64,000 bases of DNA from Numida meleagris (Eukaryota; Chordata; Aves; Galliformes; Numididae). The translations under genes were made by a program, and so were the position numbers. Each line of letters begins with the position of its first letter. Positions within the stretch are counted from its first letter, which is position 1. Shown here in pieces: positions 7,601 through 64,000 of this stretch. The notes under the pieces are model-generated. The model did not search any database. It saw nothing but the letters and a program-made list of their open reading frames with translations, and was not told where the DNA came from. The stretch is taken from assembly GCF_002078875.1 (NCBI RefSeq), contig NC_034422.1:3331872-3395871 (forward strand), written 5' to 3'.

Positions 7601-10600
7601 CTTACAACACCTGTCATTTTGTGATTTTTACCCAAGGAGAAGAAAGGGTAGAGAACAGAGGGAAGAGCTTAGAGTGTCTATGGAAATGGACAAATGGATT
7701 CCAAGACATCAGACATTTTAAATAATTGTCTCCAAAAATAAGTTTGAAAAAACCATTCCTGCTAGGATACCACACTCTAAAACATAGTCTCCTAAATTTC
7801 AAACCTGTAGGATGACTTATATTTGTCCCAGTTTTGTAGCACCATTATTCTTGGTGCTAGATGAAAGATTTTTGATACTGTAAGCTTATTTTTGTTTTTG
7901 TTTGAATTAATTATACAGTAGATCATTGATCTGAGTAGTTAGAGATAACCTGTAATTTAAAATGCAGTTAGAAAAAAACTACGTTGTAGCAGAAATGCTA
8001 AGTCAGGGCTTGAAGCAGTGATGGAGCACCTGGTGGGTAGGCAGGGCCAGCCCAGGGGAGCTCAGGCGTGTGCAATGCAATGCAATGCACCTGAGTGACC
8101 AGAAGGGGTGGAGCCAAGATCCACCTTTTCCCAGACCCCATTTAAGGGCTGGCAGTGGAGGTGAGGGTATCTTGTGAGAGATCCCTATGTGCTTGGGGCC
8201 TTCTGAGGGTAAGCAGCTTCTTTCATTTCTGTGCTCATGACGGTTGTGTTTGAGCAAACTCACTTGCTCCAGCCTGGGACCTTGCTGCTCTGCTGTCCTT
8301 GCTGTGCTTTCCATCGCCTTGCTCACATTTTCAGCACTCAATTGTTTTACAAGCCAACAAAGAAAAGTGTCAAGCTAGAGTTTTAGAGGGTTCATCGCAT
8401 TTTGTTAGAGGGTTCATTACATTATTATTGAATTACATAATTTGATAGCAAAAGCAAATATTAATTAGTTTACTAACCTTCAGGTCCACAAACTTCTGGG
8501 TTGCTAATGCAAGAATTCTGATATCTTCCAAAGAAGAGAAAGGTAACTCCTTTCTTTTCAGTAACATAAATTCCCTTGTTCACCATTCCTTCTACAATGT
8601 CTAAAGGAAATGCAAAATAGAATTTAAAGCTTATGTAAATGAAAAACTGCTGGAAACATAATTTTTAGGAGGTTTGTGCACTTATGTATTAACAGAACCT
8701 GGAAATCATTATTTCAAAGTAGTGTGAACAAACCTTACATTTTCCAGGTTTCTGAGCACTGGACGCATCATACAAGTATTTCTGACTTGCTGTTAAGTAG
8801 AGTTGGGCAAAAAAAAATTTCATTACATGAAAATGTAACAGAATACTTGTCATTTACTGAAAGGGGAATTTTGTGACCAAAATCCACTCTTCATTATATA
8901 TGAATATATATAGATATACTTGACAAGCTATATTTAAAAGACAGAAAAATATCTGTTTTGAGCATGCTTTAGTATGACACCGTATATATTACTCATAAAG
9001 GTTATTCCTTTGTCTAACATGGACAATGATTATTTTTCTTGTGAGTTACTTGTGTTCTCTGCTTTAAGAGCACTGTTTATTCATTCTCTAATAACCAAAG
9101 CACATGAGCAATCCTAATACTTAAACTTTGTCAGGTTTTTTTTTTTTACCAGAGAAAGCTTCACTGAGATTTGAGAGTCCAGCTGATAAATGACAGTAGG
9201 AAGTTCACTTCACTTGTCCCAGGATAAGGAGACTATGTTAGCAATGAAGACAAGTGGAAATCATGATAAAAAAAAATCAGTTATTTAAAGAGCCCTCATT
9301 CCACAGAATATAGTCCACGATTTCTTTCTAAGCAGACAACAGAATTGTCTAATTCAGTATATGATTTTAATATCATTGTTTGTGGTAGGAGTTCTGCAAT
9401 GATTATGAAGATTCAGTATCTTGGTTTTAAGACTCTGTAATTTCTTCTGACAAAAAAAAAGCCTTAGGAAAAGAGCTGCTGCAAGGGAAACATCAGCAAT
9501 GGGGACAGTCTTCTCTGAAGCGCAGGAATTGTCATCTAGGTGTTGCTTGATACTTGGGAACTGAGTGAGCTTATAATGGAAATGAGAAGCACACAAAAAT
9601 GGTCCCACCCCTTTGGGGGGTTAGACATAAAGGATTTTCCTCTGTATTTATAGATGTACATCTGCCTGACTTGACATAAGCCTTCTGCACAGCAGAGAAC
9701 AGTGAAAATCAAACCAGAGATGCATGAGCAGTGCTAGAGTCAGACTATGTCTGGGGTGATAATCAGAAATACCACTGTCACTGCTTCAGGTTGGTGCATC
9801 CCCTCATGCAGTGGGGACCTGCGTGAAAGGGAATGTCACTTTCAAAATGCAGGCGACCAGAGGGAATAAAGGCAGCCATAATACTGGCCCATCTGCAGGA
9901 TAACACTGCTCAAGAAGGCAGTGGTGCAGCATTTAATAGTCCTCAGTGAACATGCCCAAGTATTTTCATAGTTCATGCCAAATCTCAATGCAAATACCTA
10001 AAATTTTCAGGTGTGTTCCCCTGCTCTTGAGTAAGAAGTCATCAAAACAGATGAAAACTCAGTTCTTTTTAAAAATTAGACTAAGTACTGTGAAGGGAAG
10101 CAAATCTTTTTGAGCTCTTTTTTAGTCACTTTAATATTAATCTAACCAGAATAAATACCATCAAGTAATGCATCCCTGTTTCTATTGAATTTCCTTTGCC
10201 ATTTTAGTGTTTGTAATGAATTCATCTTCTGCATAGTTTACACATAGTAAGTTCTGTAAGGCAGGTAAATGAGGACTGGAAGGAATTAGGGTCACTTGAC
10301 ATTCATTATACGGTTCATATTTGCCAGCATACTTTTAGAGTACAGAGAAACAGTGGGTTTATGATTCTAATATAGGCTTCTTAGTATCCAAATGACTGTT
10401 CTGCCATTTTCATCCTTCTCCTTAAATTAGATTTTTCCAATGACTGGATGTGAGCTGGTACTTAATCTTTAAGTGGACAACAGGTCATATGTCAATTGTA
10501 CAAGTATAAACCCTAGTGACTTCAGTTAAGTGACTTTGGTTACATTTACTTAGTTTCCAATCTGGCAGGCTTCTGCATGGAGTGTTGTCACTTTCTGTTC

Positions 10601-26050: not shown

Positions 26051-26953
26051 AACAATTACGCAGTAATCTGACTGTGTCAGATTTGACCAGACTTAGGTCA
26101 ATAAGTGCTCCTATGAACTGCCACAATGCTCAGTTCTCAGGCAACTTGTATGCTTCTGACTGGCAGAAGAGGCATTTCGAATGGCTTTTACAGCGCAGCA
26201 TTTGAATGCGTACTGTACTCATTTACTACAGCTTGAATCCAGTGCTTTGGAAGTGGAAGTCGGCTTTATTATGCAAATAAAATACGCAAACCCAAAGGAG
26301 AAAAAAATACTGCTTCAAAAATCAAATGGCGACGGATAATGCAAAAATAAAATATTAAAAATATATTTTAGGATTGCTTATGTGTAGGGCCGTATGCATT
26401 TGCATGTGCATATGTACCTGTGTCTGTGCATGCATGAGCTCATGTCTGAATGTGCATGCATTAGTTTACATTCGCTATTTTGTAATCTAATAAAAAAACC
26501 TGTCAGGAAAGCTGACTTTCTTGTATACCCTCAGCATGAGCAAAGTAACATTGCTTCCCTCCAGTGTGATTTTCAGTAGACATCAAGATGCAAAGTCATC
26601 AATCTGTTACCACCTTGTGTAGCGACGTGCTTAGAGCAGCAGCAGTAGGAGCAGTACTGAGTGCTGCATGGTACCTTACATGAAGGACTTCAAAGCAAAG
26701 AAGAGCCATATGTATTAGTCACACGATTTGCTATTTTTGGTTCTACGTTTTCTACAGAAAACCTAAATAGCTGTGTCAGGAATGATCCTGATGCTTCAGA
26801 ATACAAGTTTAACATCATTATGCGTCACACGGTAGTTAAGATTTTCGTAGCAATTTTGGTCACTAGCATAAGAAACTAAACAAAGGTAGGGGCTTCTTGT
26901 TGGTGACTTTGTTACCCTTACACATTTTTCATTTTAGCTGACCTTTAACAGTG

Positions 26954-27308
26954 TGTAGTGGAAGAGCTGGGTCAGGGCTTGAAGCAGTGATGGAGCACCT
27001 GGGGGGAAGGCAGGGCCAACCCAAGGGGAGCTCAGGTGCAAGCAATGCAATGCAATGCACCTGAGTGAGCAGAAGGGGTGGAGCCAGGATCCCCCCCTTC
27101 CCAGACCCCATTTAAGGGCTGGCAGTGGAGGTGAGGGCATCTCCCTGGAGATCCCTATGTGCCTGAGCCCTTCCATGGGTAAGCAGATTTTCCTCCTTTG
27201 TTTCTGTCTCCATGGCTGCTACGTTTGGGCTTATCCTTCCTTGCTGCAGCCTAGGACTTTGCTACCCCACTGTCATTGCTGTGCTTGCCATCACATTATA
27301 ACGTTACA
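26954..27308 (+). repeat. LTR-like interspersed repeat, copy B, with target-site duplication
   Basis: The element begins TGTAGTGG, ends GTTACA and is flanked on both sides by CAGTG (26949-26953 and 27309-27313). A 5-bp duplication with TG...CA ends is the signature of a solo LTR left by a retrovirus-like element. It contains the same GCAATGCAATGCAATGCACC and CCCATTTAAGGGCTGGCAGT core as copy A. No viral genes are present. It lies between ADGRD1 and RAN. Confidence 0.65.
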
Positions 27309-47400: not shown

Positions 47401-50271
47401 CTGTCCACATGGAGGAATTCAGTGACACACCTTTGCTCCATATGCACTTCCCTGTCAAATGCCATTTTGTCAGGCTGTCCCCTCTGCTGCCGTTTTTCAC
47501 GTAATGGACATAATGGAATACTGGCAGGGAGGTTTAGCCTGTGCGGCCATCCCACCAACATCTGCCTCTGGTATTGTGGGCAAATATAATAAAACAGGAA
47601 GCATTACTTTTGGAGCGGCCCTCATATGTGGTAATGGCTATGTACTGCTTTTTTTTGTCTTGAAGAACTACAATACAAGAATTTTCTCTTAATTGTTATC
47701 CTTCTGCAAAATTTTATTCGTTAATATGTGATGTTACATGAAGTACTGTTGTGTTTATTCTAGCTGGAAAGACCACCACTGATGAGGAACTGGAAGAAAT
47801 GTTAGAGAGTGGTAATCCTTCAATTTTCACTTCTGACGTATGTATTTCTGGTCCAGTCACGTCTATCATCTGTTCTGTTTGTTCTGCTATTTAGAAATGT
47901 GTGTCAGTGCTTCAGTACTTAAGGCCGTATTTTTTGTTCTACCAAAGATTATATCGGACTCCCAAATAACTAGGCAAGCTCTGAATGAAATTGAGTCACG
48001 GCACAAGGATATTATGAAACTGGAGTCCAGTATACGGGAACTACATGAAATGTTTATGGACATGGCTATGTTTGTTGAGACTCAGGTAAATGAACCCATT
48101 AAAATACGTTTACTTAAGTGAGACGGGGTTTTTGTCTTCATCTTTAGAAATATGTAGAAGTAATAGAGATGTTTCTTAGTGTTTTTGGACCACAATTAGA
48201 ATATATGAAAGTTAATCACTAAAATTTGTTTTGTTTTAAATAAATGCACAATAGAGATGTACTGATAGTACGTGCTTTGGATAACTAAGTGTGGACTTAC
48301 TTGGCAGTTAGTATCTTAAGTATACTTTCCTCTTCTACATACTGGTATTGCAATACATGCTTGAACGTTTTATGTGTGTTTAAGAACAGCTCTGTCCTGG
48401 AATACTGGCTATTGTTGTGGCAATCTAGGATTCTCACAGATATGGTGACTTGTTAGAATTAAATGTAGACAGGATTTTTGCAACTTGCCTGTAATACAAA
48501 GGTGTGATTTTTTTTTTTGTTACAACAAGCAAAAATGTAAAGGGATCAGTTGACAAGTCATTCAGTTTGTCACTCATTCATGAACTTTAACTTGAGGTGT
48601 GTGTAAACTTGTTATATTTGCAGTCTTTAAATACGTATTATCTAACTAAAATATTGAACTTCAGTTCTTAAAGGTTTTTTATTTCTGCCAGAAAGTGAGA
48701 GGAATTATGTTCAGGAGGGAAACTTTCCTGAAAAGGACCTTTTTCTAAATTGAGTTTTGTTTTAAAGTCTTGTGTTGTTTTATTATTAAGTATATAGGCA
48801 GGAAAAACTGGTAGTCATTTCCTAATGAACTAGAACTAAACAAAAAAAATTACTTGTGCATCATTCTTTAATGCTTTGCTGTTTACTGCTGCTGATTATT
48901 TCTTCTGATGGACAGAAATGCAGGTAATAGATTTACTGTTACTTTTCACCAATCCTCCATTTCATTTCCAAGTTTCATCATCATAATTAATTTGAATTTA
49001 TATATTGATGTTATAAACACTCAACTTTGTATTTTGCTTCCTGAAGTTACTACTGTATGTGTGGGGTTGGTTTTTTTTGATAACCATTAGACTTTGTATC
49101 AAAATAGTCAATATCTCTCCCCACTTGAAAGCACATCAGAGATGTCTGACCTTTAGTATGTCAGTTTTAGACTGAACATCTGAAAACATACCTTTGAATG
49201 TGAGGTATGTTTTACCAGTCAATGTTTGTTCCTTCGTAACAGAGAAATACGCCTCCTTTGCCCGTGAATGTCACTTCTTTGTTTAGATCTTCGAGCCCTT
49301 GCTTCTCATTCCCATTTTTCCATTGCATATCAAAGCACAAAAAATGACTGCCACTAATGTTGTAAAATATTTTTGATTCAAATAATATTGATATTCTATA
49401 GCTTTTTTTCTCAGATTCATGGAACAGGGATCCTCAGATGCCAATAATAAACTTTTTTGTTCAACATTTAATTTTAAGGGTGAAATGATCAACAACATAG
49501 AAAAGAATGTGATGAATGCAACAGATTACGTGGAGCATGCTAAAGAAGAGACAAAGAAGGCTGTTAAATATCAAAGTAAAGCACGAAGGGTATGTGGTCT
49601 TCTTGTAACTGTTTGAGTCAGCGTGTTAACATTGCATGCCATTAAGCAGCCTTCAGTTTTAGTTGAACTGTTTTGCTGTATTCAGGTAGAATTAATAGGT
49701 GTACTTTACTTTTTTTGAAGATTAGGTATTTAAACTTAGAAAACATTGGATGATAATATTTTTGTTATAAATTAGTATATGACAGAGGAAGATTTACCAA
49801 AGGATTTCACAAACCAAAACAATGTGGTGAATTTGTATGATAGTTTTAATACTAAAACCTGACATTACTAGCAGAGAAGGGAACTTCCTTTTATTCTTAC
49901 ACCTGTTGTATTAAATATAGTGAAGTGCCAGAAGAACCCACTTACATACTTGTAAGCTGTGTTTTTCCTTTTTGATTGCTATATAGGTATTAATCACAGT
50001 AACTTACCTGTGAACACTGTTCAAAAATGATTATTCTTGTACATACAGAAGTATAGAGAAAACGTTATCTCAATTTGAGAATGTTGCAGGCTTTAAAAAT
50101 GTATGTGGATCTAAAAATTGACTTTTAAAAATTGAAAATACAAGTTTTAATGTGCTTGATATTAAAATAATACCTTGTTTTTGACAGAAAATGTGGATTA
50201 TTATCATTGTGTCAGTGGTGTTGATTGTCGTAATTGGTCTAATTATTGGTTTGTCTGTTGGTATTCGATGA
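38148..50271 (+). CDS. STX2: STX2 (syntaxin-2/epimorphin), main isoform, 288 aa
   Basis: The exons are 38148-38177, 42781-42852, 43108-43207, 43803-43877, 45249-45322, 45519-45627, 47764-47837, 47948-48085, 49479-49589 and 50188-50271. All introns are GT/AG and all phases agree, giving 288 residues, the usual family length. Domains: short N-terminus ([10 protein letters not shown]), Habc three-helix bundle (about 30-150), SNARE motif (about 190-255; [14 protein letters not shown], zero-layer glutamine in FVETQGEM), C-terminal membrane helix. Known function: plasma-membrane Qa-SNARE pairing with SNAP-23/25 and VAMPs in exocytosis, abscission and the acrosome reaction; a non-classically exported form acts as the morphogen epimorphin. 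The ATG is in good context 10 codons before the first donor, as in mammals. An alternative last exon lies at 51721. Confidence 0.97.
38178..39311 (+). other. STX2: STX2 intron 1, 5' part
   Basis: The first 250 bp belong to the CpG island, then AT-rich intron. No other feature recognised. Confidence 0.65.
39312..39685 (-). repeat. CR1 LINE 3' fragment, antisense to STX2
   Basis: GAAAGGGACCTACAAAGATC, then TAGTCCAACTTCCTG, is the reverse complement of the CR1 3' end. CTCCTTTTTCTCCAGACTAG matches the CR1 interior in the same orientation. It is diverged and lacks the terminal 8-bp repeat. It lies in STX2 intron 1. Confidence 0.8.
39686..42780 (+). other. STX2: STX2 intron 1, 3' part
   Basis: No further exons or recognised repeats. 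Confidence 0.6.
42781..42852 (+). CDS. STX2: STX2 coding exon 2
   Basis: Encodes [20 protein letters not shown] and FFQQ; the acceptor is TACCTTTTACAG. Phase 0 both sides. Confidence 0.95.
43108..43207 (+). CDS. STX2: STX2 coding exon 3 (Habc)
   Basis: Encodes [20 protein letters not shown] and continues to LSAPNPEG. Strong TTCTCTTCTTCTAG acceptor; ends in phase 1. Confidence 0.96.
43803..43877 (+). CDS. STX2: STX2 coding exon 4 (Habc)
   Basis: Encodes [20 protein letters not shown] and ARLK; phase 1 in and out. Confidence 0.96.
43878..45248 (+). other. STX2: STX2 intron 4
   Basis: Nothing recognised apart from a T run near 44253-44265. Confidence 0.6.
45249..45322 (+). CDS. STX2: STX2 coding exon 5 (Habc)
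   Basis: Encodes [20 protein letters not shown] and RKTQ before a GTATGA donor. Confidence 0.96.
45519..45627 (+). CDS. STX2: STX2 coding exon 6 (Habc)
   Basis: Encodes [20 protein letters not shown], then [16 protein letters not shown]. The acceptor is preceded by an A-rich rather than pyrimidine-rich stretch (CCTAAAAAAAACAG), unlike the other exons. Confidence 0.95.
45628..47114 (+). other. STX2: STX2 intron 6, 5' part
   Basis: AT-rich intron with a short TA run near 46209-46220. The mariner remnant follows directly. Confidence 0.6.
47117..47624 (-). mobile_element. internally deleted mariner-type DNA transposon, nonautonomous
   Basis: The ends are imperfect inverted repeats of about 30 bp (left GGGCACTACATAAAGTAATG; right end, reversed, GGGCCGCTCCAAAAGTAATG). 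Each end is flanked by TA (47115-47116 and 47625-47626), the mariner target duplication. On the minus strand a broken transposase reading frame remains. An N-terminal piece ([20 protein letters not shown]) is followed at once by a C-terminal piece ([18 protein letters not shown]). The catalytic middle with the D,D34D triad is gone. At about 508 bp it is MITE-like and immobile on its own. It lies in STX2 intron 6. Family similarity (chicken Galluhop/Mariner1-like) is from memory. Confidence 0.8.
47764..47837 (+). CDS. STX2: STX2 coding exon 7
   Basis: Encodes [20 protein letters not shown] and FTSD, the linker that binds the SNARE motif in the closed conformation. Confidence 0.96.
47948..48085 (+). 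CDS. STX2: STX2 coding exon 8 (SNARE motif, N-terminal half)
   Basis: Encodes [20 protein letters not shown] and continues to [11 protein letters not shown]. It carries the zero-layer glutamine at its end. Confidence 0.97.
48086..49478 (+). other. STX2: STX2 intron 8
   Basis: No other feature recognised. Confidence 0.6.
49479..49589 (+). CDS. STX2: STX2 coding exon 9 (SNARE motif, C-terminal half)
   Basis: Encodes [20 protein letters not shown] and ends at KYQSKARR, the basic juxtamembrane segment. It ends in phase 0 and can splice to either last exon. Confidence 0.96.
50188..50271 (+). CDS. STX2: STX2 last exon, form A (membrane anchor)
   Basis: Encodes [20 protein letters not shown] followed by GLSVGIR and TGA. 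It corresponds to the mammalian isoform ending in GLSVGK. A candidate ATTAAA polyadenylation signal lies at 51111-51116. Confidence 0.93.
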   Translation, partial: KMWIIIIVSVVLIVVIGLIIGLSVGIR

Positions 50272-51720
50272 TGCTTGGATAACTTCAGCATGCATGACTT
50301 CCTGCCAGTGTGGCAGTAAGTAACTAATCAACTAATTTTGCTTTTATTTTGCTCTGGTAACTTCTTGGTATACTAACCCTTAATATGTTTTCAGTTACTA
50401 CTGGAGGGGAGGGGGGGCAAATTTGAGATTAATTGGTGACTCCTCCCTCTCTGCATGCTGTAACAGTTCCATGCATGTAGATGTTGAAAACTGACACCTA
50501 GTGGTGAATTGCTAAATTTACAGATCGCAGTCATGCTCCTTAAGATCTCTAAACACAAAATGAACTGAGGAGGAAAAAAAAAAACCCACAGCTTATTGTC
50601 TCAGTCCTTTGAATTTCTAATATCTTTCAAGTTCACATCAACAAACAGCCTGCACTAAGATACAGATTACTAGTTGCACTTGGAACTTTGTCAGATGTGA
50701 TTTTCTCTGGTTTTAAACGGAGCTTGCATTGAAGTAGGTGTCTGCAGCCATAAAGCTGGCTATTTTGCCTTGCAGAACATCCTAAAATGAAGCTCTCGTA
50801 TTAATAGTAGACCAAATGAAACCATGTGACTGTGTATTTGTAAGAATAAGTCTGCAAAGATTCAAACCTGAATTAGAGGCTGTAAATGTGAGAATTCTTT
50901 CAATCTTCAGACTTTTGCTATACTAATCTTCTTCTTGTAATAACATCTAGCTAGGCTAAGGAGATAATAGCAATTAACGCTTTTGAATGCAGAAGAAACT
51001 CAACTTCCTATCTATGTGTTCTTCAAAATATTTATGAAGTACCATGAGGGAGTATGTCATTTCAGACAGCTAATCAGGAATCCCATTGTCTGTACTAACA
51101 CCATTTTGATATTAAAGTTTTTTAGTTTTGACACTAAGTTGGAGTTTCTTGTCCCCTTTGGTGTTTGTGCCGACAACAGGCTTTACTGTATTGTTGCTGA
51201 TAGAAATACATGACCTAATGTTGCACCTTTATGCATATTCATAGAACCTTTTAATTTTTGTGAAGCTCTTCTGAGCTGTTAACTGTACAATGCTTCTAGT
51301 GATGTTTTGTTCAATTCCCCTGAGTGCAATTGCAAAGGTTTGAGCTGGCTACAAATATTTATCCAAGGAGGGCAGCCGGAGGCAGTGTTAGTATATTTGA
51401 CTTGACTTTGATAAGTAGATGTTCGCTGTTGTGGTTGTTTCTATATGTAATTGTATTTACAGAAGTTGTATACGGGTAATAATTATTCTCAAAACAAAAA
51501 TACAGAATTGTTACACAGGTAGCTTACCTAGTAACTGTGACTATGTATGTTAGAAAAGAATGACTAACAATAGGAAATCATGGCAGTAAGTTTTATTTAG
51601 AAAGAAAATCCAAGCACTTAGGATAGATAGCAGTGTTACTAATTTGCTGTGGGTATGCAGATATTTAAGTAGTTCTGTATCTGACTAGATACTTCAATCT
51701 TAACTTTTCTTTTTTTTCAG
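50272..51720 (+). other. STX2: STX2 form A 3' UTR / intron before form B exon
   Basis: This stretch is 3' UTR for form A and intron for form B. Apart from the ATTAAA at 51111 and a G-rich GGGGAGGGGGGG run near 50406 nothing was seen. Confidence 0.65.
51111..51116 (+). promoter_or_regulatory. STX2: candidate poly(A) signal for STX2 form A (ATTAAA)
   Basis: ATTAAA lies between the two alternative last exons, about 840 nt after the form A stop. Form A needs a poly(A) site here unless it splices on. Confidence 0.35.
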
Positions 51721-51798
51721 AAATTGATATTCATAATTATATGTGTAACTGTATTACTTCTGATACTTGGAGTTATCCTAGCAACAACACTATCGTAG
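51721..51798 (+). CDS. STX2: STX2 alternative last exon, form B (second membrane anchor)
   Basis: A strong TTTTCTTTTTTTTCAG acceptor precedes an in-frame segment KLIFIIICVTVLLLILGVIL, then ATTLS and TAG. It resembles the alternative C-terminus of mammalian STX2 ending in ATTLS. It joins exon 9 in phase 0 and gives a 286-residue protein. AATAAA follows at 51929-51934. Confidence 0.9.
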   Translation, partial: KLIFIIICVTVLLLILGVILATTLS

Positions 51799-53060
51799 CA
51801 GGCATATTCTAAAAGCTACAAACCTTCAGAAGCTCCAGAAGATATCTTCAGTAAAACCAAACTTCTTTGGATAGAAAATACCTTACATGGATACGTGATG
51901 ATGACCTATTATTAATGGCTAAAATGAAAATAAAGTCACTCTTAATGTTTACTTATAAATGAAGATTGGAATGTACCAGGTTATGTATATTTTTTGTCAT
52001 AAACTATACATTTACAGTAAGACTGAAACTTGCTTTTAATTGTTTTGAACTAAAGCAACTTGGATGCTTTCGTATTTCAGTGTTACAAACAGTTTAAATA
52101 GGGAGTAAAGATACTTGAGTTTTGACTGTTTGGATTTTTTTTATTCCTACTATTATAATTCTAATCACAATTTTATAACCTTGCCATTGCTGCTTCTAAG
52201 TTAGCACTCCTGTGAACATTTTTTTGAGATGTAGCTATGCCTTTAAATATATTTATTCACCTTAACCTGCCTAAGCTTAATACTTAAAAATTATTTCCAG
52301 CAAGTGCAAAAATATTTTGTTCCAAAAAGACCACTTAGATATGTACCGGTCTGCCTCCTACATTACACGTTGAAAAGCAAAGACTTTTTTAAAAAACTTA
52401 GCAGTTTTTTTTCTATATGACTATGGATAATTGCTTTAAATATTTCCTTGTCTTTATATTAAAAAATGTTTTCTGGTAGAAGTAATACAGATATAAAGCA
52501 CAAAATTTGAACTTCAGCAGATAATTTTACAAATAGTCTTCATACAAACAAATCTGATGGATCAGTTTAGCCTTATTGCTCGTATGAATGACAAAAATCA
52601 TACTTGCTTCAATATACCCAAGTTAAGATTTGGTTTTTTTCAGAAGCTCACTGATGTTGCGGTGTGAGTATAGCACATGGGAAGAATAAACACTCAGAAA
52701 ACTCTGAAACGTAATGCAAACTAAGACACTGATTTGTTACAAAATGTATGTATTATATAACAATATGAAGTGTTTTAGTATATATGCATCTGTGTTGTAA
52801 TACTAGCTTGCAAGACCTGAAAGCTTGTAAGACTTCAAATGTAACCAAATAACTGCATTTAATGTTAAAAGTTATTTTTGTATTTTGCGTGTAAAATATT
52901 TGTAACTTGAATTTTTGATTTCTCGTTGTTTAGAATATCCATGTAGATATGTAGATATATTTACACTGTAAGAGAAATAGAGGAAATTACAGCGTGTGCC
53001 TTTTTAAACGTGATCTAAAACAATGCTTGTCAATGTTTCCAAATATTAAACTATAACATG
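51799..53060 (+). other. STX2: STX2 form B 3' UTR and flank
   Basis: AT-rich sequence with several AATAAA/ATTAAA signals (51929, 52685 and weaker ones later). It is probably 3' UTR with alternative ends; the last end cannot be fixed. Confidence 0.5.
51929..51934 (+). promoter_or_regulatory. STX2: poly(A) signal for STX2 form B (AATAAA), proximal
   Basis: Canonical AATAAA 131 nt after the form B stop. A second AATAAA at 52685-52690 could serve a longer 3' UTR. Confidence 0.55.
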
Positions 53061-56000
53061 AATTGCAATAACTCAGATTAGAATCCTTGGACTTAAGTTT
53101 TATGGGAAGTGTCTGAGATCAGTTATTCACTAAAATGTAATTCAGTCTTTTTTACATCATAAAATTCAGCAAAGTTTACAATATATATTGTATGTATGAA
53201 TATTCCTGCTTTGTCCAATTATACTGTGAATATGCTGGAGCTATTCAGATGTCAAACATTAAAAAATAATTTTAAAAATTCTCTTTTGCAAGCCAGCCGT
53301 AAAGAAGTTGCTTGAAGAAATTAACTTCATTAATGAACAAATTTTTTTACTTTGAAGTCCAGAATGCTCACCAATGGTTGTGGGGAAGTTTACATGCAAA
53401 GTAAGGAAAGATTGGTTACATTTGTAATCATTCTAGGTAATATATTTTCTGTTCTATGGTTTTCTAGATTTTAAAAAATATTAATTATTTATACAGATAC
53501 TAAGTATGCTGGGGAGGGGGATCAGTTCTGTTCAGCAGCTGCTGGTTATCTAAAATAGTGCTCCAAATCCAGTCATGTTGATTCATTTCTTTATTTAATT
53601 GATAATGCAGTACCTTGCCTACTAAGAACAGATATTAGAATATGTCACTCCATGCATTTTTATTTTCTTTTGTTATATAGCTGCCTCTGTTTAAAACCTT
53701 GTTTTTCACATAAACCTCTTCATCCTGTTAATATTGTGGAGGAGGACATCTCTAACCTATGCACGAATAAATTTATCTAAGCAAGTATCTGGTGGCTATT
53801 TTTATATTCATGATGTTATTGTGACCTTTGTGAATATTTCCAGTAAGTGTTTGAATAAGGTATGCAAAAGCATACCAGCACACATGTCAAACAACTGCTG
53901 TGTCTTATTCATTTACAGTATTCCTGTATAACTTGATTAAATATTAAACCTGAAAAATAGAGTAATTGTATCTGCATAGAGATATTCATATATTTAAAAA
54001 AAAAAAAAAAACCCTATAGAAGTGCATCTTCACTATACTGAATTGAAATGATGACCTTGCTTGCCTGCCCCAGCTTCTCAGTTAGTAAATAATTGGAAAT
54101 GTTGGAATAGATTCAGAGTTTTGATGTACAAGTGTACTGGTTATTCACCAGTGTCTTTTCAAACACAGTCTGAAACTGTTTGTCAGTGTTTCCAAATATT
54201 TAAAATTTAGATTGCAGATTGCCACTCTAATAGCTTCTTGCTGACAAGGCATTGAATGGTGTTGTCTGAGAGGTGATGGTGTAACCTGTTCTTTCTCCTC
54301 CAGCTGTGTGCAGCACTACTGCCTCTCACCTGCCTGCTGGTCTCCAGCAGCAGTGGTGAGCAGCAGCAAGCAGTCTGCTTGGAGCTGACAGCTGCAGCCC
54401 CACGGGCTGGGAGGAGCAGTGCCCGCACTGGGGCTTGTCTCCTGGTGCCTTTTCTCCTGCTTGTGAGTGTCACATGCTGAGGTGGGAACCTTCCCATGGT
54501 CAGTGCCATAGCAAAAGCAATAGTGTAATATTCTTTGAGAGGGAAGATTGGCTGTGCTCTTTTTGTGGCTTGGGAGCTTTTTCAGAGAATTTTTAAGAAA
54601 GAATGCCTATGGCCTTATCAGTTTAATTTGATTCAATGCTATCTTCATATAGAAGTAAATTTTCTTAGCTTATTTAACAATCTAACACCAGCGGAGATGT
54701 GCTTGGGAGTAAATAACAATGCACTAAAATGCTGGGAATTGATGAATTTGTCTGATTGTAAGATAACTGAGCAGTTATGCTTGACTTTGGGGGGGGGGGG
54801 GGGGGGAAGCCACAAATACAGAAAGAAGCAGCCAGCTGAGCTTAGTGTGGATTGTAAGAGAAAGCCTTCAGGGTTTTTTCTTTTCTTTTTTTTTTTAAAG
54901 AGTTATGTTACCTAATGTTAAACTTGATTTGATACATTCATCTGGCTTGTTAAGCGACTTCTACAAATAACTGGGCATGCTTCATGCTGCAGTCAGTGGG
55001 TCAGCCTTTGCACCTGTGAATCAGCTCAGTCTTTTCTGTCACATACAGTAACTGTCTCAGTTGCAGTGTCACTATTTTAGTTACCTCTGTCAAACATGCA
55101 AAGTCCTTCCACACGCACGGTAGTAGTGTGACATTTACAAATCAGCTTTTTGGAATAAAAAGACCATTTTGTAAGTGCTTATAACTAGGTTTTGAAGAAC
55201 AAAAGTGCTTCTCAAAGATTTTTTTAAAAAGGAAGTATACAGAAATGGTAAGTAGAGACAAAATAATTGCATATTTTAAAGAACGTTCTGATTTCAATTA
55301 TTGGCTGCTTTTGAATCCAATTTTTTTCTTTCTTTAAAGGAGGAAAGGAGGATTTTGATGTTTGTTAGTAAATAGCTCTTAGAACTGCAAGTTATGATAT
55401 GAGTTGCTAACAATATGTAGCAGACTGTGGGCTGGGAAGAAAGCAAGGGTTATGCATAAGAAAATAAACTATATTTACTATATACAACTTTCAGAGAGAA
55501 CAGGAAAGTATATTGGCTCAGCCCATGCTAGCTCTGGTAAACTGAGCTGGACCACTTTAACAGGGCAGCTCAGTTTAGAGAACATGTCTGAATGAAGATG
55601 GGCTCAGTAGAGGGGCCATTTCTATAACAGCTCTCTAAATTTACAGTGCTTACACGGAACTTTACAGGCAACTTCGATGCTAGGTAACCTAGTCTTACTG
55701 TGCAGAACTATTGACTTTCTGTAGTTAAAAGGTTTTTAGTATCTTGATTCTGCTGTTATGTAATCTGCATTGATGTTTTTAACACTGCATATGTTTGTTA
55801 TGGGAATCATATCTAAAATTCCTGAAATCATACATGGAGGCTGGTAGATGACAAAACATACAAGACTATTAAGTTCACAATGTTGATGTCTTATGCATTT
55901 GCTACAGAAGTATTGTAGCATCTTATTAAGTGGTGATAGCTTAATAAAGCAGGGAAGGAAGACAACTGTAAACTAAAGGAAAACAAGTCAACATTTACCA

Positions 56001-58102
56001 GCCTTCTGCTGTAATGGACTCTTGCAGGCTTACTGTTAATCCCCAGATACTCCATCATGTGGAAAATGTGTGTAAATGCTGACAGGGCAGCAGTACAGTG
56101 GATAGTACAATGACGAAGAATGCTTCCTTGGATTTAAGTATTCTGAGTTTATATATTTGAATTTGTATTGAGTAAGATCCCTTTCCTCTATACTGTTCAC
56201 TTTTTATTTTAATAAGCACTGATTAGGGATTGGAAACTAACATCTGGGAGGCATTTTCATTCTAGCCTTTTTGGTGAAAATTTTTGTTTTGTAACATATT
56301 TTGAATACAAATCTGAATTTTGCAATAATAGAATACATTTAATATCTATTACTGCAATCCTTATATACTGTAGAATTGTATCAGGGCATATAGCAGCACT
56401 CTAGGCATGCATATCTATCTAATGTTAGCTCTCTAGCCTCTGTAAAAACTTCTCTCCATTCCCTCTGTAGACTATACGGTTTCTGCTGATCTCCCTTTTC
56501 AAAATTTAAGTAATCACCTTTTTGAAAATTAATTCTCTTATTGCTGATTTTTCTACCTTGTCTTTTCTGTCTAAATGATTGAATGATGACTAACTTGCTC
56601 TGCAGATGTTTTATTCTTGCTACTTTATTTAATGGACTTCTGGCAGAGGCCTTTTAAATTACTATGACTCTGAAGTAGCAGCCTTCTGCAGTGCAGCACA
56701 CCTACTTGGGACCTGCTCAGGGAAATATTTGCCACTTCTTCATGGCATTGTTTTAATTGCTGGCAGTACTCACAGAATGCTGTTGAAAAAGAGATACTTC
56801 CCAAAATGCAGACTTCCTTAGCTTTTGAGCCATCTCACTGCAGGTCTTAAAGTTTCTTCCAATTTCTTCCGTTGGTCTTCTGCTTTCCTTCTGTTGATGC
56901 CATTGCTTTTAGAGGCACTGTCTATTCTATTAGTGAATCTACTTCATGGTATCTGTAGTGAGGAAAAGCAATGGTATGCATGCCTACTAAACAAGGACAA
57001 TTACTGACGATAGGGACTGATCTTAGTTTTATCCACATGGCTGCCAACCATCTTAAAAGGGTAAATATAGCTGCTAGGAAACTGATCTAACTGAATCTAA
57101 CTTGAAAGCAAGCTGAGGAAAAAAAAATACATAGATGAAAAATCAAACAGCTTTTAACCTTCTGAAAAGCTGTAGAGGGAAAAAAAACAGCCTGGTTCTA
57201 AGTTCATGCAGATTTAAACATCGCATTTCCAGCTCACATGCTCTTGATTTTCCCTTTTGGCAGTTTGTTCAGATTAGAGTTAGTGGATGGAATCTCAGAG
57301 GAGAATAAAAGCCAGTGTTTTGAAAACTAATGAAGTAATTATCCAAAGCATTATTTACAATGATTACTTAGAAGATAATGAGACCCTTTAATTATGTTTG
57401 TTCTGCATAGCTAGCCTTTCAATAATTCAGAGTACTACTGTTCAATTTCCTCTATATTCACTTTGCACATTTTTGTTTGGAAAACTGTCACAGCTGTTTG
57501 TTATGTGCAAGTATGGGCCCTTGTTCTGGATGTCGTTTGTCACACGAGGATCACCTGCTCCCTTCAGCTGGAGTAGGAGGCTTTTAAGTTCAGGCTTCTC
57601 TGACCCTTCAGTGTAGTGCAGAACAACATAAATGCGGGGTGAATCGAAGCTGAACCTCTGAAGGGCTGTGTTGTGGCTTGGAAGTAGCACTGCTACATGG
57701 TAACATATGCATTAATGCAGTAAGTAAGGTTTCTGCTACTGTTTATCTCTTTACAGGTAAAGTTTGAGTTTACTTTCATTTAGGGACTCCTTAATTTTGT
57801 TTGAAGTATAAGTTGTTTCTTTTTAAGAGCTTTACTCACTTGTCTATAAAAAATGCAGAACATCATTAGTATTTTAGCAGCTAATAAATATTTCACTAGT
57901 ATTTTCATAAGCATTCGTGAACCTGCTGCTAAAATAAGACAGTTCTGCTTAAGCACATGCCTAAACGTTATGGTCCCCAAGGAGATCCATCTTTTGTCAC
58001 AGGCTTTATCTTAATTTGGTACACCAATGAAGCACAGACTCGCTATGTGCAGTGATGCTACTCCACATTAGTAGGGCAGATGATGTAGTCATTGATGCTT
58101 AG
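53061..58102. other. region between STX2 and the unnamed gene
   Basis: No supported exon. An A run at 53996-54012 and an 18-base G run at 54789-54806 stand out. A GC-richer patch at about 54240-54510 gives a 100-codon minus-strand ORF without recognisable motifs. Confidence 0.5.
54789..54806 (+). repeat. poly-G tract (18 G)
   Basis: Uninterrupted G run in AT-rich surroundings; it could form a G-quadruplex and is prone to length change and sequencing error. Confidence 0.9.
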
Positions 58103-58345
58103 AAATCAATACGAATGTTAATCCCAGAGAGGCTCCACGGGCTTGGAGTTTGTCTGCTGGCAGTTTATTTAGAGTCAAATCGACTCCTGTTGGAATCTTT
58201 CCATCGACTTGGAGAGATGCTGCAAAGGGCAGCTGATCTTATACTTACCTTTGATTACTTTGAGGCAGATATGCAGCCTAAGCAGAAGCATATTTTAATT
58301 ATGCTGGAATATATTTTAAATGTACAGAAACAGAACCATGGCAGA
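58103..58345 (+). CDS. unnamed gene, candidate exon a
   Basis: Open frame after a weak GATGCTTAG acceptor, with ATG at 58115, up to a good AGA/GTAAGG donor. Encodes up to 81 residues, helix-like, ending LEYILNVQKQNHGR. If it is the first exon, the AG is irrelevant and the ATG is the start. Confidence 0.4.
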
Positions 58346-61300
58346 GTAAGGTAGAAGTTAAAATTCCAAAGAGCACATTAAGCAATATGGTGTTCTGTTT
58401 CGCTTGGTCACTGTGAAATCAAATTTTAAAATAGTGCATTTAAGTAGTGAATTCCTCTGTACAAACGTGTCAAGAATTACATTGCTCACTGTGGGTGTTA
58501 ACTGTTACTTACATATAGGAGTCATATATGTCTCAGTGGCTAGTACAAAAAGTTCTAGTTTCAAAGGGTCAAAAACACTGTGACTACTCATTTGCAATAC
58601 AACTGAGAACGCTGACCCAGCCTCCCCAAAACTTGGATTAAAGACACAAGGTGGGCCATGAATGTTTTGGAAGGAAGAGAACAAAGGCGTTGAGAAAGGA
58701 AAGGAGAAATATTTGAGTAATATGTCTGTTGCCTTGAAGTTGTAACTAGTGAAATGATACTGTCTGACTTGATTAAGTCAGAAGACCTGTATATGCCAAT
58801 GTGAGCTTCTCTCCAGGGAGTTGAAATGCTCTCAAGCCACTTTTTCCCCTTTATTACAGAAGAAAGCTATCAGTCACATTCTGGATCATGGCAATTCTGT
58901 ACTGGATTCCCCCAAGTCAAACCAATCATTTCCAAAGGCAGCTAAGTCCTTGATTAAAGATCAAGAGGAAGACAAAGTAGTGAGTAACCTTTTCCAATCT
59001 AGGCTATGTCAGAACTCGTTTGAAAACTTGCCTGGTGTTTCTTGTTGGTTGTTTTCTTGTTATTGTTATATTATTTCCTTTTTTTGAGGTGTGATATTAT
59101 AAGTAAATGTATATAATAAGCACTTTTATTAAACTCTTAATGTATATATATTTTAAGAGCTATACGAAGCCTTGTTAACAAAAGGCTTTCTGTTATAGGA
59201 TTAGTATGCAAACTAATTAAAACAGAAGAACCCTACTGCTTGGTATGTAGCTTAGAAAGGGTAGGTCAGAAAGTACCTTGTTTGTGAGCAGTAACAGTAT
59301 AACACTTGCACACCTGATCTGACTACAAAGGTGGGCTATTTTGGATACACTGTGCCTGAAATCATATACTTGTATGAAAGAAGAGTTGCTCTAGAGCTTG
59401 TGAAGCTTCTGACAGGAGGTGCCCTCTTGATGTCCCTGGTGAGTCTGAAGTGAGATGTAGATCATGGTTAAAGCCTAAGCTCACAGGCCCAGGAGGCTAT
59501 GGCTACTCTTTCAATCTGTCCCTCTTTCTTTCATCTCTGTTGAGGAAATGTTTTTATCTCCACAACAAATAATTCATATTAAGAATTCTAGTTTAGTATG
59601 TACTCTCTGACTTCTGGGTTTGCCGAAGGGCATTGCAAAATTGTTTCCACAAAATGCCTGGTGGATCTGTATTCAGTTATGTTACCCACTTGATATCCTC
59701 ATGACCCTCATCAATACATTCTTAGGCATTTATTGTTAGAATAATTGCAGTTCCTTCTCACATTCCCCACATTAAAAAGTCTCTGCTTTCTAAACTGCCT
59801 ACGAAGCGGCACATCCATTTTTTAAATAAATTAATTTGCATGTGTAGAAGAGTACATTTAGCCTACGCCTACAATATAAAGCTTTTTTTAACCTACAGAT
59901 ACTGCTCACAAGACTATAAAAAAAAAAAAATAGTCACCTAAAACTTGGTTCAGAACCCTTATAATGACTGTAGCAAGTTCCTACAAAGGACTGTGAAGTT
60001 ATTTAGTAGCATAATGTGTGATCTGCATTTCTGAAATGGTTGGATAATTGACAGCCTATGTATGAATTTTGGAGGCTAATTTTAGGTTACAGTAATCTTG
60101 CCCTGTGCCTGAAAACTTGATACCACACGGTCAGGTCACCCACTCTGCCAGGACAAGTTGGGAGAATGGCTCTGATGTTCCGTGCAGACCCAGAGCATGA
60201 CAGCTGGGCACGTTTCTGTTCACTTGATTCTGGAGCTGTTCATAAGGCTTTTGTCAGAGTCCCCATTTATACGGTTTTCCCCCAGAGTATTTTGGAGATT
60301 TTCCTTGCAATATGAGGGAAATAAAAAGGTGGAACAAATTAGTCATAGTACAAAAGAACAGGTAAAATCATAGGAAGATAAAATTCAGCAAGTGTTGATA
60401 TGTACTTTTAATTACAGCTGATATATGTGGTTTTTTTGTTTTTGTTTTTAATCCTGAGAAGTAGTGGAGATTATTGTAAACTTCAAGTGAATTTGAAGAA
60501 AATAAAGGCAAAGCCCCATTGCTGCCCTGTAATCCAGCTGGATTCAGAACCTATATACAACAGACTTGGGTTTAGCTAATAGATTGGCTTTCTACATTTT
60601 TCTCATCTAAGTTGGTTCATTGCTAAACTAGAAGCAAGCATGTGCTATAAAGGATGACTCACAGACTTGTGGGCCAGGATGCTTTTCTTGCTTTTTCCAT
60701 TGAGCATTTTTTATACTCGGACACAAATAAGTGCTCTTGTTGACTTCCCTATCATCTAGTACCGGGAAAGTAAATCTGAAATTATTTTGATTACGTTACA
60801 ATATATTTTTTGTGATTAAAGAAGTATTGGTTAATTGCCATCTATGATAAACTTTTAAGTTCTGAGCTTACACATTGATGCATATAGCACTGCCACTCAA
60901 TATAGTAACATATAAAAGGAAAACAACTGAGTTGTGTAGAATAGTGCTTTTTTAAATAAATAAAAATGTATGTGATGTTCTTATTTAAATGAATGATTTA
61001 TTGCGGTTTGAGAGAAAGCCAACAGCTTTGTGAGGAAGGGAGGATTCAGGGACATTAGCGGTTTGGAAATGGGAGCTAGGATAGGAAAATGGTTTTCCTT
61101 TTTCTTCCCCTACTCTTGGACGGTGAAATAAGCTATAGGAAGAGAAAGGGGGAAAGAAGTTATGGGCAAGGCTGGGAAGTAGCAGCTCCCTTTGAGCAAA
61201 CCTTCATTTTGCTTTTCCTTGTGGTGGTAGTACCTGATGTCAGTGCCAACCCTGCTGCTGTGCAGATTGCTCCCATTAGCATCGGCATTATCTCCCTTCC

Positions 61301-63580
61301 TCCCTCACCATCAGCAGCCACAGTGAGCTGTGCCAGCTTTATGCCTGCAGCCAGCTCTGGTCCTAGCCAAGACCTTGTTCAGCTTTATTTCTCTTTTGAA
61401 TCTGGTTTTATTATACAGCAGTCTAGTAAAGAAAAGGTATTCATACTTGTTTGCAGTTCCTGCATGGATGATATAAATGGTCTTATTCAGTGTCCTGCAA
61501 TAACTTTCCGGAAAAGTTTTTTTTAAAATTCTCATCAAAATGCCTTTACATGCAGTAACTTCCTCTGTATACAGTTCTATGCTCTCATCTCTCAAATATG
61601 TGTACATTTATTCTATATATTTGCTACCTCTTCCATTTCAGTGTCTTTTGAGATGTTGTTTCCCACTATCAAAATGTCAAGTAAAGAAAGAAAGAGAGTG
61701 CAAGAGGAGGGAAAGCTGCATTCATTGTTCAGAAAGGACTTCTGGATTCCTCCCAATTGTCCTGGGCTATAACTAGCAGGAATCATGAAAGCTAAAACTG
61801 TGACAGATGGTTTGCGTTTGTAGTATGAGTGGTTCTAATGACCACCTTTGGTTCACAAAGAGTGACTGCAGAACAGCTACTAGAAGGCTTCTTTTCAAAC
61901 TCAAGCAGCTATCTGCTTTATTAGAAACAATTCACTTTTCCTTTATATTTGGTTTGTTTTGCTGCTTTTTCCTTCTACTGTATTCTGGTAGAAATTAGAG
62001 CGTTAGGGAAAATAATTGACTCAACTTCCTCTTCTGCAGAGAGGTCCAAATTTTCCTAATATGAAATCCACTCCCCAAATGGTACAAAATGCCAAGTCAT
62101 GCTGATGAAATAGAGACAGCCAGACTCAAGATTGGCAGAGAAAGGATGAAAATAAGGATAGTGGTGTTTGGAAAAACAGATCACTTTAGTTTACCCTTTG
62201 GGAGCAGCCTAAGTTATCCTAGATTATATGTTAATAAAGTAAAATGACATCTGCTTCACTAGTGCTTGTAAGACAGCATGCAGAGTGAGTGACAACAGGA
62301 ACCTCCATTATGAAGTTTCCTTTAAATGTACATAAGCAGAGGAAAGAGGGATCAACCTTCCTGAAAGAATACTGAACTACAGTGAACTGAGCAATATGGT
62401 ATAAGGCCATTTCCCTAGCTGCTTGATGTTTGTTTAGGCTTTCAAGCTCAATGATGCAAGACTTGCTCATATTGAGTGAAGCACACTGTAAAGTTTGTGT
62501 GATTTCAGCAGTATCTTGTAATTTAAAAAAGCAATCCATGCTAAGCTCTCTAGTACACTTCAAATAACAACGAATAATAATACGTATTTACTCTGTACCC
62601 TGTCATTCTGAATTGGGTAACAGTAGAAAGAACAAAGGTCCCACACTTTGTGGTTCTTTATCCTCCTTAATTCCAGGGATGTAGCAGAAAATGCACTCTT
62701 TTGCTAGAGTAATCTGATGAAGTAATGCCACTTTACGTAGACCCAACATGAGCTTCTTCCTAGGATTGAAAAATAGACAAAATGCCATGCAAGGAGCAAA
62801 ATGCTTCTAATAATATCACTTATAATTTGGTTTGCAATGGTGCCGAGTCTATCACTTCGTAGCACTAGCCCTCTTGACACTATGCTGAGCACTGTGCAGA
62901 CACGGGACTGGTGACTGGGCTCTGCCACAAACATACTGTATAGTCAGTTGTTGAGTGAAGGGCACATTTAATTTGTTCCATCGGCCTTCTTCAGCTTCAA
63001 GACTGCACTTTGAATCTTGTGCTTTACTATGCAAGAGCAAATTTATATAATACCAGCCAAATCACTGAGACATTTTAGATGTGTTGCAATGTGTTTTAAC
63101 GAGATGTGACGCATTATGTTCCACAGTCCAGAAAGGGCAACAGGAAAGCAAAACAAACATCGGAAAAGCTTCCACACTTCCGACCTGAGGACAGAAGCAG
63201 ACGGAAAGGTAGCTCAGTAACTCCTAAGAGCATCAAGGTAAGGGACTGTTACGTGTGTGAAGCCTTTCAGTGGCCTTACTGCCAATTGCTGAAGCAGCTC
63301 TCATGGCGTTGGCCCGAATCAGGGGCCAATCAATTTTGCTTCCCTGGTATGAGTATTTTGGTTTTATGGTCTAGCACAAACTACTCCTCTGTCCGCAGTT
63401 TTAGATAAAGGAAGCAGTGAAGATATTCTCGAGGTTCTCTTGCAGCTGAGACAGAGCACCCCGTTTACCCCCAGAGGAACCGCTTTTCCAGTGACGCTGG
63501 GGGGCATCAGTGGTCGGGAAGTTCATCTGATGTTTATTCTGTCTCCTCTTTTCCATTTGCTAATTGACCAGCTCTCCTGA
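58103..63580 (+). CDS. unnamed multi-exon gene downstream of STX2 (putative)
   Basis: Four exon-like segments lie on one strand: 58103-58345, 58860-58979, 63127-63208 (or 63237) and 63399-63580. Joins are phase 0, phase 0 and, with the 63208 donor, phase 1, so one frame runs through to TGA at 63578-63580. AATAAA follows 61 nt later. The product would be about 205 residues: an alpha-helical N-terminal part (LESFHRLGEMLQRAADLI), a polar Lys/Ser-rich middle (SPKSNQSFPKAAKSLIKD), a basic segment (SRKGNRKAKQTSEKLPHFRP) and an acidic-leucine start of the last exon (DKGSSEDILEVLLQLRQS). I recognise no family, and this is not RIMBP2 as I know it. ATG at 58115 could be the start, or earlier exons may exist. 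More exons could lie in the 4.1 kb between 58979 and 63127. Function unknown. Confidence 0.45.
58860..58979 (+). CDS. unnamed gene, candidate exon b
   Basis: Excellent acceptor (TTTTTCCCCTTTATTACAG) and donor (GTGAGT) frame 40 codons starting KKAISHILDHGNSVLDSP and ending DQEEDKV. Phase 0 on both sides, joining exon a in frame. Confidence 0.5.
58980..63126. other. intron of the unnamed gene (or intergenic)
   Basis: Holds no confident exon. A segment at 60289-60360 has an acceptor (GTTTTCCCCCAG) and a GTAAAA donor, but its open frame does not fit exon b. A Pro/Ser/Ala-rich open stretch at about 61235-61380 and a 110-codon minus-strand ORF at 62231-62563 are unassigned. Confidence 0.4.
63127..63237 (+). 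CDS. unnamed gene, candidate exon c (two possible donors)
   Basis: After a GTTCCACAG acceptor only one frame is open: a basic peptide SRKGNRKAKQTSEKLPHFRP followed by EDRSRRK. Donor GTAGCT after 63208 is weaker but gives the phase needed for the last exon. Donor GTAAGG after 63237 is stronger and would extend the peptide by GSSVTPKSIK, but does not match the last exon's phase. Confidence 0.45.
63399..63580 (+). CDS. unnamed gene, candidate terminal exon
   Basis: Acceptor TCCTCTGTCCGCAG is strong. The only long open frame begins LDKGSSEDILEVLLQLRQST and runs 59 codons to TGA. The poly(A) signal is close behind. Confidence 0.45.
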
Positions 63581-63641
63581 GCTCTCAGTGCTTCTCTCTT
63601 CAGCAAATACAAGCACATAAAAATTGCTTTTAAAAAAAATC

Positions 63642-63647
63642 AATAAA
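63642..63647 (+). promoter_or_regulatory. poly(A) signal of the unnamed gene (AATAAA)
   Basis: Canonical AATAAA 61 nt after the TGA of the candidate terminal exon; cleavage expected near 63665. Confidence 0.45.
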
Positions 63648-63824
63648 CACTTAAGTGTTTGGCATCTCTCAAACTTCTTACTGCACCGTTTACTCAACAG
63701 CTTAATGTTTAACAGAAGCAACTTGCCTGTTAAATACTCATGTGCAAATTTAGCAGGTATGACACATCACAGTTTAATTCAATTTTTCTCACTCTTTTCA
63801 CTCATGACAAAATGAACTGTTTCA

Positions 63825-64000
63825 GAGCTCCGCGCGCAGCGGGGCCACCTCAGGCGGCGGCGCGAGGCGGGAGAGCAACGACTGCGGGGCCGCGAGGTGC
63901 AGGGGAAAGGGCGGGAAGCGGCCGTGCAGCGCTGTGCTGAGCAAAAAGGGCGGGAAGCGGCCGTGCAGCGATGTGCTGAGCGAAAAGGGCGGGAAGCGGC
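63825..64000. promoter_or_regulatory. start of a CpG-rich block at the right edge, probable promoter of the next gene
   Basis: GC content and CpG density rise sharply at 63825 (CTCCGCGCGCAGCGGGG) and remain high to the edge. By synteny the next plus-strand gene should be RIMBP2; this is inference. Confidence 0.45.
63906..64000 (+). repeat. 39-bp GC-box tandem repeat (2.4 copies visible)
   Basis: The unit AAAGGGCGGGAAGCGGCCGT is repeated at exactly 39-bp spacing: the GGGCGGG cores start at 63909, 63948 and 63987. Units differ by single bases (GCGCTGTG versus GCGATGTG). The array runs off the window. Each unit holds an Sp1-type GC box. Confidence 0.9.

What the first reader, a model, noticed from the sequence alone, without database searches (positions are those of the whole stretch)
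58103..63665. Unrecognised multi-exon gene between STX2 and the expected RIMBP2
Four exon-like segments on one strand share a reading frame across three joins. Exon b has excellent splice sites. The terminal segment has a strong acceptor, 59 open codons, a stop and AATAAA 61 nt later. The peptide is not repeat-like and matches nothing I know. Human has no coding gene here that I am aware of, so it may be a sauropsid gene or one lost in mammals.
Basis: partly seen in the sequence, partly recalled or inferred. Interest (0 to 1): 0.75.

Follow-up and report, generated by a model that had tools for sequence, protein, structure and literature searches.

The report
Upstream coding exons of RIMBP2
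Two of the four proposed exons look like real, conserved coding exons, but they belong to the start of the known synapse gene RIMBP2 rather than to a new gene beside it.

Summary
Nine of these are named "uncharacterized", one "hypothetical", and one "RIMS-binding protein 2 isoform X22" of the pigeon.

In the window's own genome, chicken RIMBP2 matches continue on the same contig and strand from 2.1 kb past the window's end. b, c and the next two exons form one open phase-0 chain with AG/GT borders. They precede the coiled coil, SH3 and FN3 parts of this presynaptic scaffold.

Exon a matches 0 of 142 proteins. Exon d matches one pheasant model, with a shifted, stop-broken frame. ORFs as long as exon a are expected by chance.

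Open: no RNA data were available, no start codon upstream of b was found, and a stop-bearing alternative exon could give an N-terminal-only product. Listed siamang and macaque RIMBP2 models lack b, c and the next two exons.

The parts
58860..58979 (+). Exon b: 120 nt, phase 0 to phase 0, encodes KKAISHILDHGNSVLDSPKSNQSFPKAAKSLIKDQEEDKV; upstream coding exon of RIMBP2
   Evidence: 13 of 142 retrieved proteins match at E<=1e-3; one place in the genome; open chain with c, core1, core2
63127..63237 (+).
   Evidence: 12 of 142 proteins at E<=1e-3; donor ranks 7 of 3,446; one place in the genome
58103..58345 (+).
   Evidence: 0 of 142 proteins; length expected by chance; single-copy DNA
63399..63580 (+).
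   Evidence: 1 of 142 proteins at E<=1e-3, a pheasant model whose frame is shifted and stop-broken here
49476..49589 (+). STX2 exon ending ...QSKARR, the upstream neighbour; phase-0 donor
   Evidence: tblastn of P0012/P0024; translation

Best explanation
Exons b and c are upstream coding exons of a long form of RIMBP2, the presynaptic active-zone scaffold RIM-BP2. They splice, phase 0 to phase 0, into two further exons just outside the window (core1 at C19:3397925-3398149, core2 at C19:3399304-3399438), and from there into the known RIMBP2 coiled coil, SH3 and FN3 exons, over about 119 kb in all. Shown: the exons, their homologues, the colinear exon chain on one contig, and a pigeon RIMBP2 model that includes both. 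Inferred: that transcripts join them in this species, that b and c are translated, and their role. The most likely role is a flexible basic leader before an extra N-terminal helical segment that adds to RIM-BP2's coiled-coil assembly.
For: Pigeon RIMBP2 isoform X22 (P0023) holds b, c, the core and the LEQVLKHMREAAERRQQ junction in one protein. In 11 of 11 proteins with both, c follows b directly. Chicken RIMBP2 (P0048) matches in 22 pieces from residue 1 to 1339 at C19:3398018-3509947, same strand. b, c, core1 and core2 are 120, 111, 225 and 135 nt, with AG/GT borders, open when joined. P0023 and P0048 carry the RIMBP2 Ig-like, SH3 and FN3 Pfam domains. A passage of PMC8574217 places Rimbp2, Stx2 and Ran next to one another beside Piwil1 in all gnathostomes.
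Against: No RNA evidence. Neither b nor c contains a methionine, no MGQ-type first exon lies between 38 and 58.9 kb, and the bird models disagree on the first exon. Only one protein named RIMBP2 contains b and c; many bird RIMBP2 models start in core1 or later. Gene models are open by construction. The pheasant model inserts an unlike segment between c and core1, and the turtle model P0013 has b but not c. Next to b, intron frame is also fairly similar in a close relative, P0002.
Confidence: 0.88

Rival explanations
1. A short stand-alone unit: b-c-core1-core2 splice to an alternative exon that ends TTNESFLA-stop, giving an N-terminal-only protein of about 200-240 residues, which annotation calls an uncharacterized LOC.
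For: The razorbill and pheasant proteins P0001 and P0008 (2 of 142) end in TTNESFLA, and the same peptide and stop follow an AG in this genome at L009:6067. Several genomes list these exons as a separate uncharacterized protein.
Against: Pigeon RIMBP2 X22 joins b and c to the full protein. The stop-bearing exon is followed by a possible donor (GAAG|GTATGC), so it may only be a skipped or 5' exon of RIMBP2. This can also coexist with the best explanation as an isoform.
Confidence: 0.07
2. b and c belong to RIMBP2 transcripts but are untranslated 5' exons; translation starts at the methionine in core1, as in the chicken model P0048.
For: No start codon in or directly before b; chicken and many other bird RIMBP2 models begin in core1 or later.
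Against: The same reading frame, without stops, in bird, gharial and (b) turtle models; gaps in the aligned set are whole codons, though gene models favour this by construction.
Confidence: 0.06
3. b and c are reached from STX2 by read-through, giving a syntaxin-2 without membrane anchor fused to the RIMBP2 N-terminus.
For: Two models do this: Pitangus P0024 (STX2 ...SKARR then b and c) and Willisornis P0012 (...SKARR then core1). The phases fit.
Against: Both may be gene-finder errors; STX2 has its own two anchor exons at 50191 and 51724.
Confidence: 0.02
4. The reader's independent four-exon gene a-b-c-d.
For: The joined frame is open, d's acceptor is good (rank 39 of 4,476), and AATAAA follows the stop.
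Against: a has no homologue among 142 proteins, d's frame is not kept in pheasant, and no homologue ends c at 63208.
Confidence: 0.01

Closest known systems
RIMBP2 (RIMS-binding protein 2), pigeon isoform X22 (P0023)
   Same: Contains b and c (54% and 49% identical), core, coiled-coil junction, SH3 and FN3 domains
   Different: Pigeon sequence is diverged in b, c and the core; its own start is also uncertain
Chicken RIMBP2 A0A8V0ZLX3 (P0048)
   Same: Matches the exons downstream of the window on the same contig
   Different: Starts at the methionine in core1, so it leaves out b and c
'Uncharacterized protein LOC...' of birds and gharial (P0001, P0004-P0011)
   Same: Hold b and c joined in frame
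   Different: Annotated as separate proteins, with differing first and last exons
RIMBP2 paralogue on contig C23 (probably TSPOAP1/RIMBP1; name recalled)
   Same: Colinear pieces like core1 (E 0.001 to 2.6 by query) and core2 (E 2e-4 to 0.025), upstream of strong coiled-coil matches
   Different: b and c have no match there better than shuffled queries

Membership tests
RIMBP2 | Next to STX2, same strand, in the RAN-STX2-RIMBP2 order | tested here: met
   STX2 on + before b; RIMBP2 pieces on + after c; order in gnathostomes from a passage of PMC8574217
RIMBP2 | Exons in phase with the known RIMBP2 exon chain on one contig | tested here: met
   b, c, core1, core2 all phase 0 and open when joined; further exons in L010, L011
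RIMBP2 | A RIMBP2 protein elsewhere contains the same exons together with SH3/FN3 domains | tested here: met
   P0023; only this one of the listed RIMBP2-named proteins has b and c at E<=1e-3
RIMBP2 | Spliced transcripts joining b and c to downstream RIMBP2 exons | not testable with these tools
   No RNA reads at hand
RIMBP2 | A start codon in frame upstream of b | tested here: inconclusive
   No MG start with a plausible phase-0 donor between 38 and 58.9 kb except a weak one at 57513; other first residues were not scanned, exon a's ATG has no homologue, and the pheasant first exon is out of frame here
Independent gene between STX2 and RIMBP2 | Own first and last coding exons, conserved | tested here: not met
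   a: 0 of 142; d: 1 of 142 with a broken frame. A short form ending TTNESFLA outside the window is not excluded

The most novel reading that the evidence does not exclude
Besides full-length RIMBP2, birds make a short N-terminal product from b-c-core1-core2 that ends in the TTNESFLA exon, or is fused to syntaxin-2 by read-through. Such a soluble helical piece would compete with RIM-BP2 assembly at active zones. The sauropsid upstream exons would also replace the MGQ-type start of some mammal, frog and sturgeon proteins, which in primates and sturgeon resembles a lipid-anchor signal (motif recalled).
Probability: 0.15. Interest if true: 0.5.

Novelty: already known. Interest (0 to 1): 0.28.

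Why it matters
It turns a claimed orphan gene, and a scatter of 'uncharacterized' entries in birds, gharial and turtle, into the N-terminal end of a known presynaptic scaffold. It suggests that the RIM-BP2 leader differs between lineages: the siamang and macaque models seen lack b, c, core1 and core2. Constructs and antibodies designed on the annotated bird start would miss this part.

Tried and rejected
Pfam and solved-structure searches of the joined peptides and of P0001 gave no significant match (best E 0.25, 0.11, 0.13 and 0.41). Rfam gave no match in the window at the gathering threshold. A scan for an MG-type first exon between 38 and 58.9 kb found no MGQ start and one weak candidate at 57513 (MGPCSGC...), supported by no retrieved protein. 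The pheasant model's first exon maps to 56027-56098, but its ATG is out of frame in the window by one base, so I rejected it as a conserved start. A profile of exon c against the echidna protein gave E 6e-4 (best single stretch 0.005), but one of 2,000 shuffled sequences scored better, so that homology is only suggestive. Exon a is not a repeat: one place in the genome. dN/dS and RNA tests were not possible: no other bird DNA and no reads were at hand.

Literature: seven searches (listings with starts of abstracts seen) and passages of PMC8574217 and PMC5496739. I saw no description of exons b and c there. The library lacks most subscription papers, so this is weak.

Full report
What was checked. 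The window is bird DNA, at C19:3331872-3395871 of a 1.04-Gb assembly. Pieces that I read as ADGRD1 and RAN lie on the minus strand (translations; names recalled) and STX2 lies on the plus strand. Openness is cheap here: runs of 81 stop-free codons or more are expected 2.7 times on the plus strand of 52-63.8 kb, and 7 were observed.

Homologues. A protein search with the a-b-c peptide (with the longer c) gave three hits among 18 candidates: a razorbill 'uncharacterized protein' and two unnamed ORFs. The razorbill protein holds b and c joined in frame. Searching with it gave 20 proteins including itself, from birds, gharial, turtles, frogs and sturgeon plus three unnamed ones; a frog protein is named RIMS-binding protein 2. 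A third search, with the pelican protein padded so as to admit long proteins, gave 226 hits, of which 120 are listed. Most of the 120 are named RIMBP2, and the best is pigeon RIMBP2 isoform X22. Of the 142 proteins retrieved in these three searches, at E<=1e-3 exon a matches 0, b 13, c 12, d 1, core1 62 and core2 80. In the 11 that hold both b and c, c follows b directly.

Exon borders. The homologues end exon c at 63237, not 63208. On the weaker side, b's donor ranks only 127 and c's acceptor 370 of 4,476. With c ending at 63237 the frame into d is lost. Exon d's only match at E<=1e-3 is an odd segment of the pheasant model; it falls in two frames of the window with stops, and so does its continuation in L009.

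Link to RIMBP2 in the same genome. Chicken RIMBP2 (P0048) matches in 22 pieces, from residue 1 to 1339, on the window's contig and strand at C19:3398018-3509947. Seven further pieces lie on C23 and two on small contigs. In the fetched DNA the next exons after c are core1 (L009:2054-2278) and core2 (L009:3433-3567). b, c, core1 and core2 are 120, 111, 225 and 135 nt, all whole codons, with AG/GT borders, and read openly when joined. Further exons follow in L010 and L011. The pheasant protein finds b and c at one place each in the genome.

What it does. RIM-BP2 is described as a presynaptic active-zone protein that binds RIM, bassoon and calcium channels (start of the abstract of PMC8445062, listing). 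An AlphaFold model of the razorbill protein has low confidence overall (mean pLDDT 56.8, pTM 0.20). It leaves the b and c part unstructured (pLDDT 42-56 per ten-residue block) and puts helices at 154-188 and 192-217, in core1 and core2. Exon c carries 13 basic and 3 acidic residues of 37. I infer a flexible basic leader before an extra helical segment; this was not tested.

Lineage pattern. Monotreme proteins, two of the frog proteins and sturgeon proteins share the core and start with MGQ or MGL. The siamang and macaque models start with MGQ and jump to the exon after core2; the Tasmanian devil model keeps core2. No MGQ start lies between 38 and 58.9 kb here, and the bird models disagree on the first exon, so where birds start translation upstream of b is open. 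On the C23 paralogue, core1-like and core2-like pieces appear in order with weak scores. The best are E 0.001 and 2e-4; with the composite query they are 0.057 and 0.025, no better than the best of 20 shuffles (0.019). b and c have no counterpart above shuffles in the 30 kb examined.

Against this reading. There are no RNA data. The start codon is missing. Only one RIMBP2-named protein with b and c was retrieved. Gene models are open by construction. The pheasant and turtle models depart from the simple chain. In a close relative (P0002) the frame of the intron next to b is also fairly similar, so the coding case rests on deeper comparisons: razorbill 70% and 68% in b and c, gharial 50% and 42%, turtle 55% in b. 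Pigeons are lower than other birds (b 54-58%, c 49-53%), which may mean relaxed constraint there.

Verdict. It is explained by a known gene whose upstream exons are scattered in databases under 'uncharacterized' names.

Noticed in passing
L009:6067 (C19:3401938), beyond the window: An exon-like stretch after CTGCAG encodes TTNESFLA-stop, the exact end of the razorbill and pheasant models P0001 and P0008; it is followed by a CTG/CCG run and a possible donor.
   Followed up: partly
49476-58979: Two suboscine gene models, P0024 (Pitangus) and P0012 (Willisornis), splice the STX2 exon ending SKARR to exon b and to core1 respectively: read-through transcripts or gene-finder errors.
   Followed up: partly
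50191-50266 and 51724-51796: Two alternative membrane-anchor exons of STX2, both starting in phase 0 after AG.
   Followed up: no
61080-61526: A 148-codon stop-free run in the intron between b and c; only 1.5% of 200 simulations had one as long. Single-copy in the genome, no significant Pfam match.
   Followed up: partly
63906-64000: A 39-base GC-rich tandem repeat, 2.4 copies, runs to the window's end.
   Followed up: no
8003-8374 and 26934-27218, minus strand: Two open frames with nearly the same peptide (PSPPLPALKWGLG.GGSWLHPF), likely copies of a dispersed repeat (repeat family not checked).
   Followed up: no
P0009, P0010, P0023 (pigeons): Pigeon versions of b, c and the core are unusually diverged (for example VERGGLGNQLGCPREELVG in place of VECEELKNQLGCLREGLMG), which may mean relaxed constraint.
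   Followed up: no
L009:5573-5635, beyond the window: A stretch of the pelican model P0004 between core2 and the coiled coil (CEYIVYSFLEKRKDGMVRMLQ) matches here at 71% with a stop.
   Followed up: no
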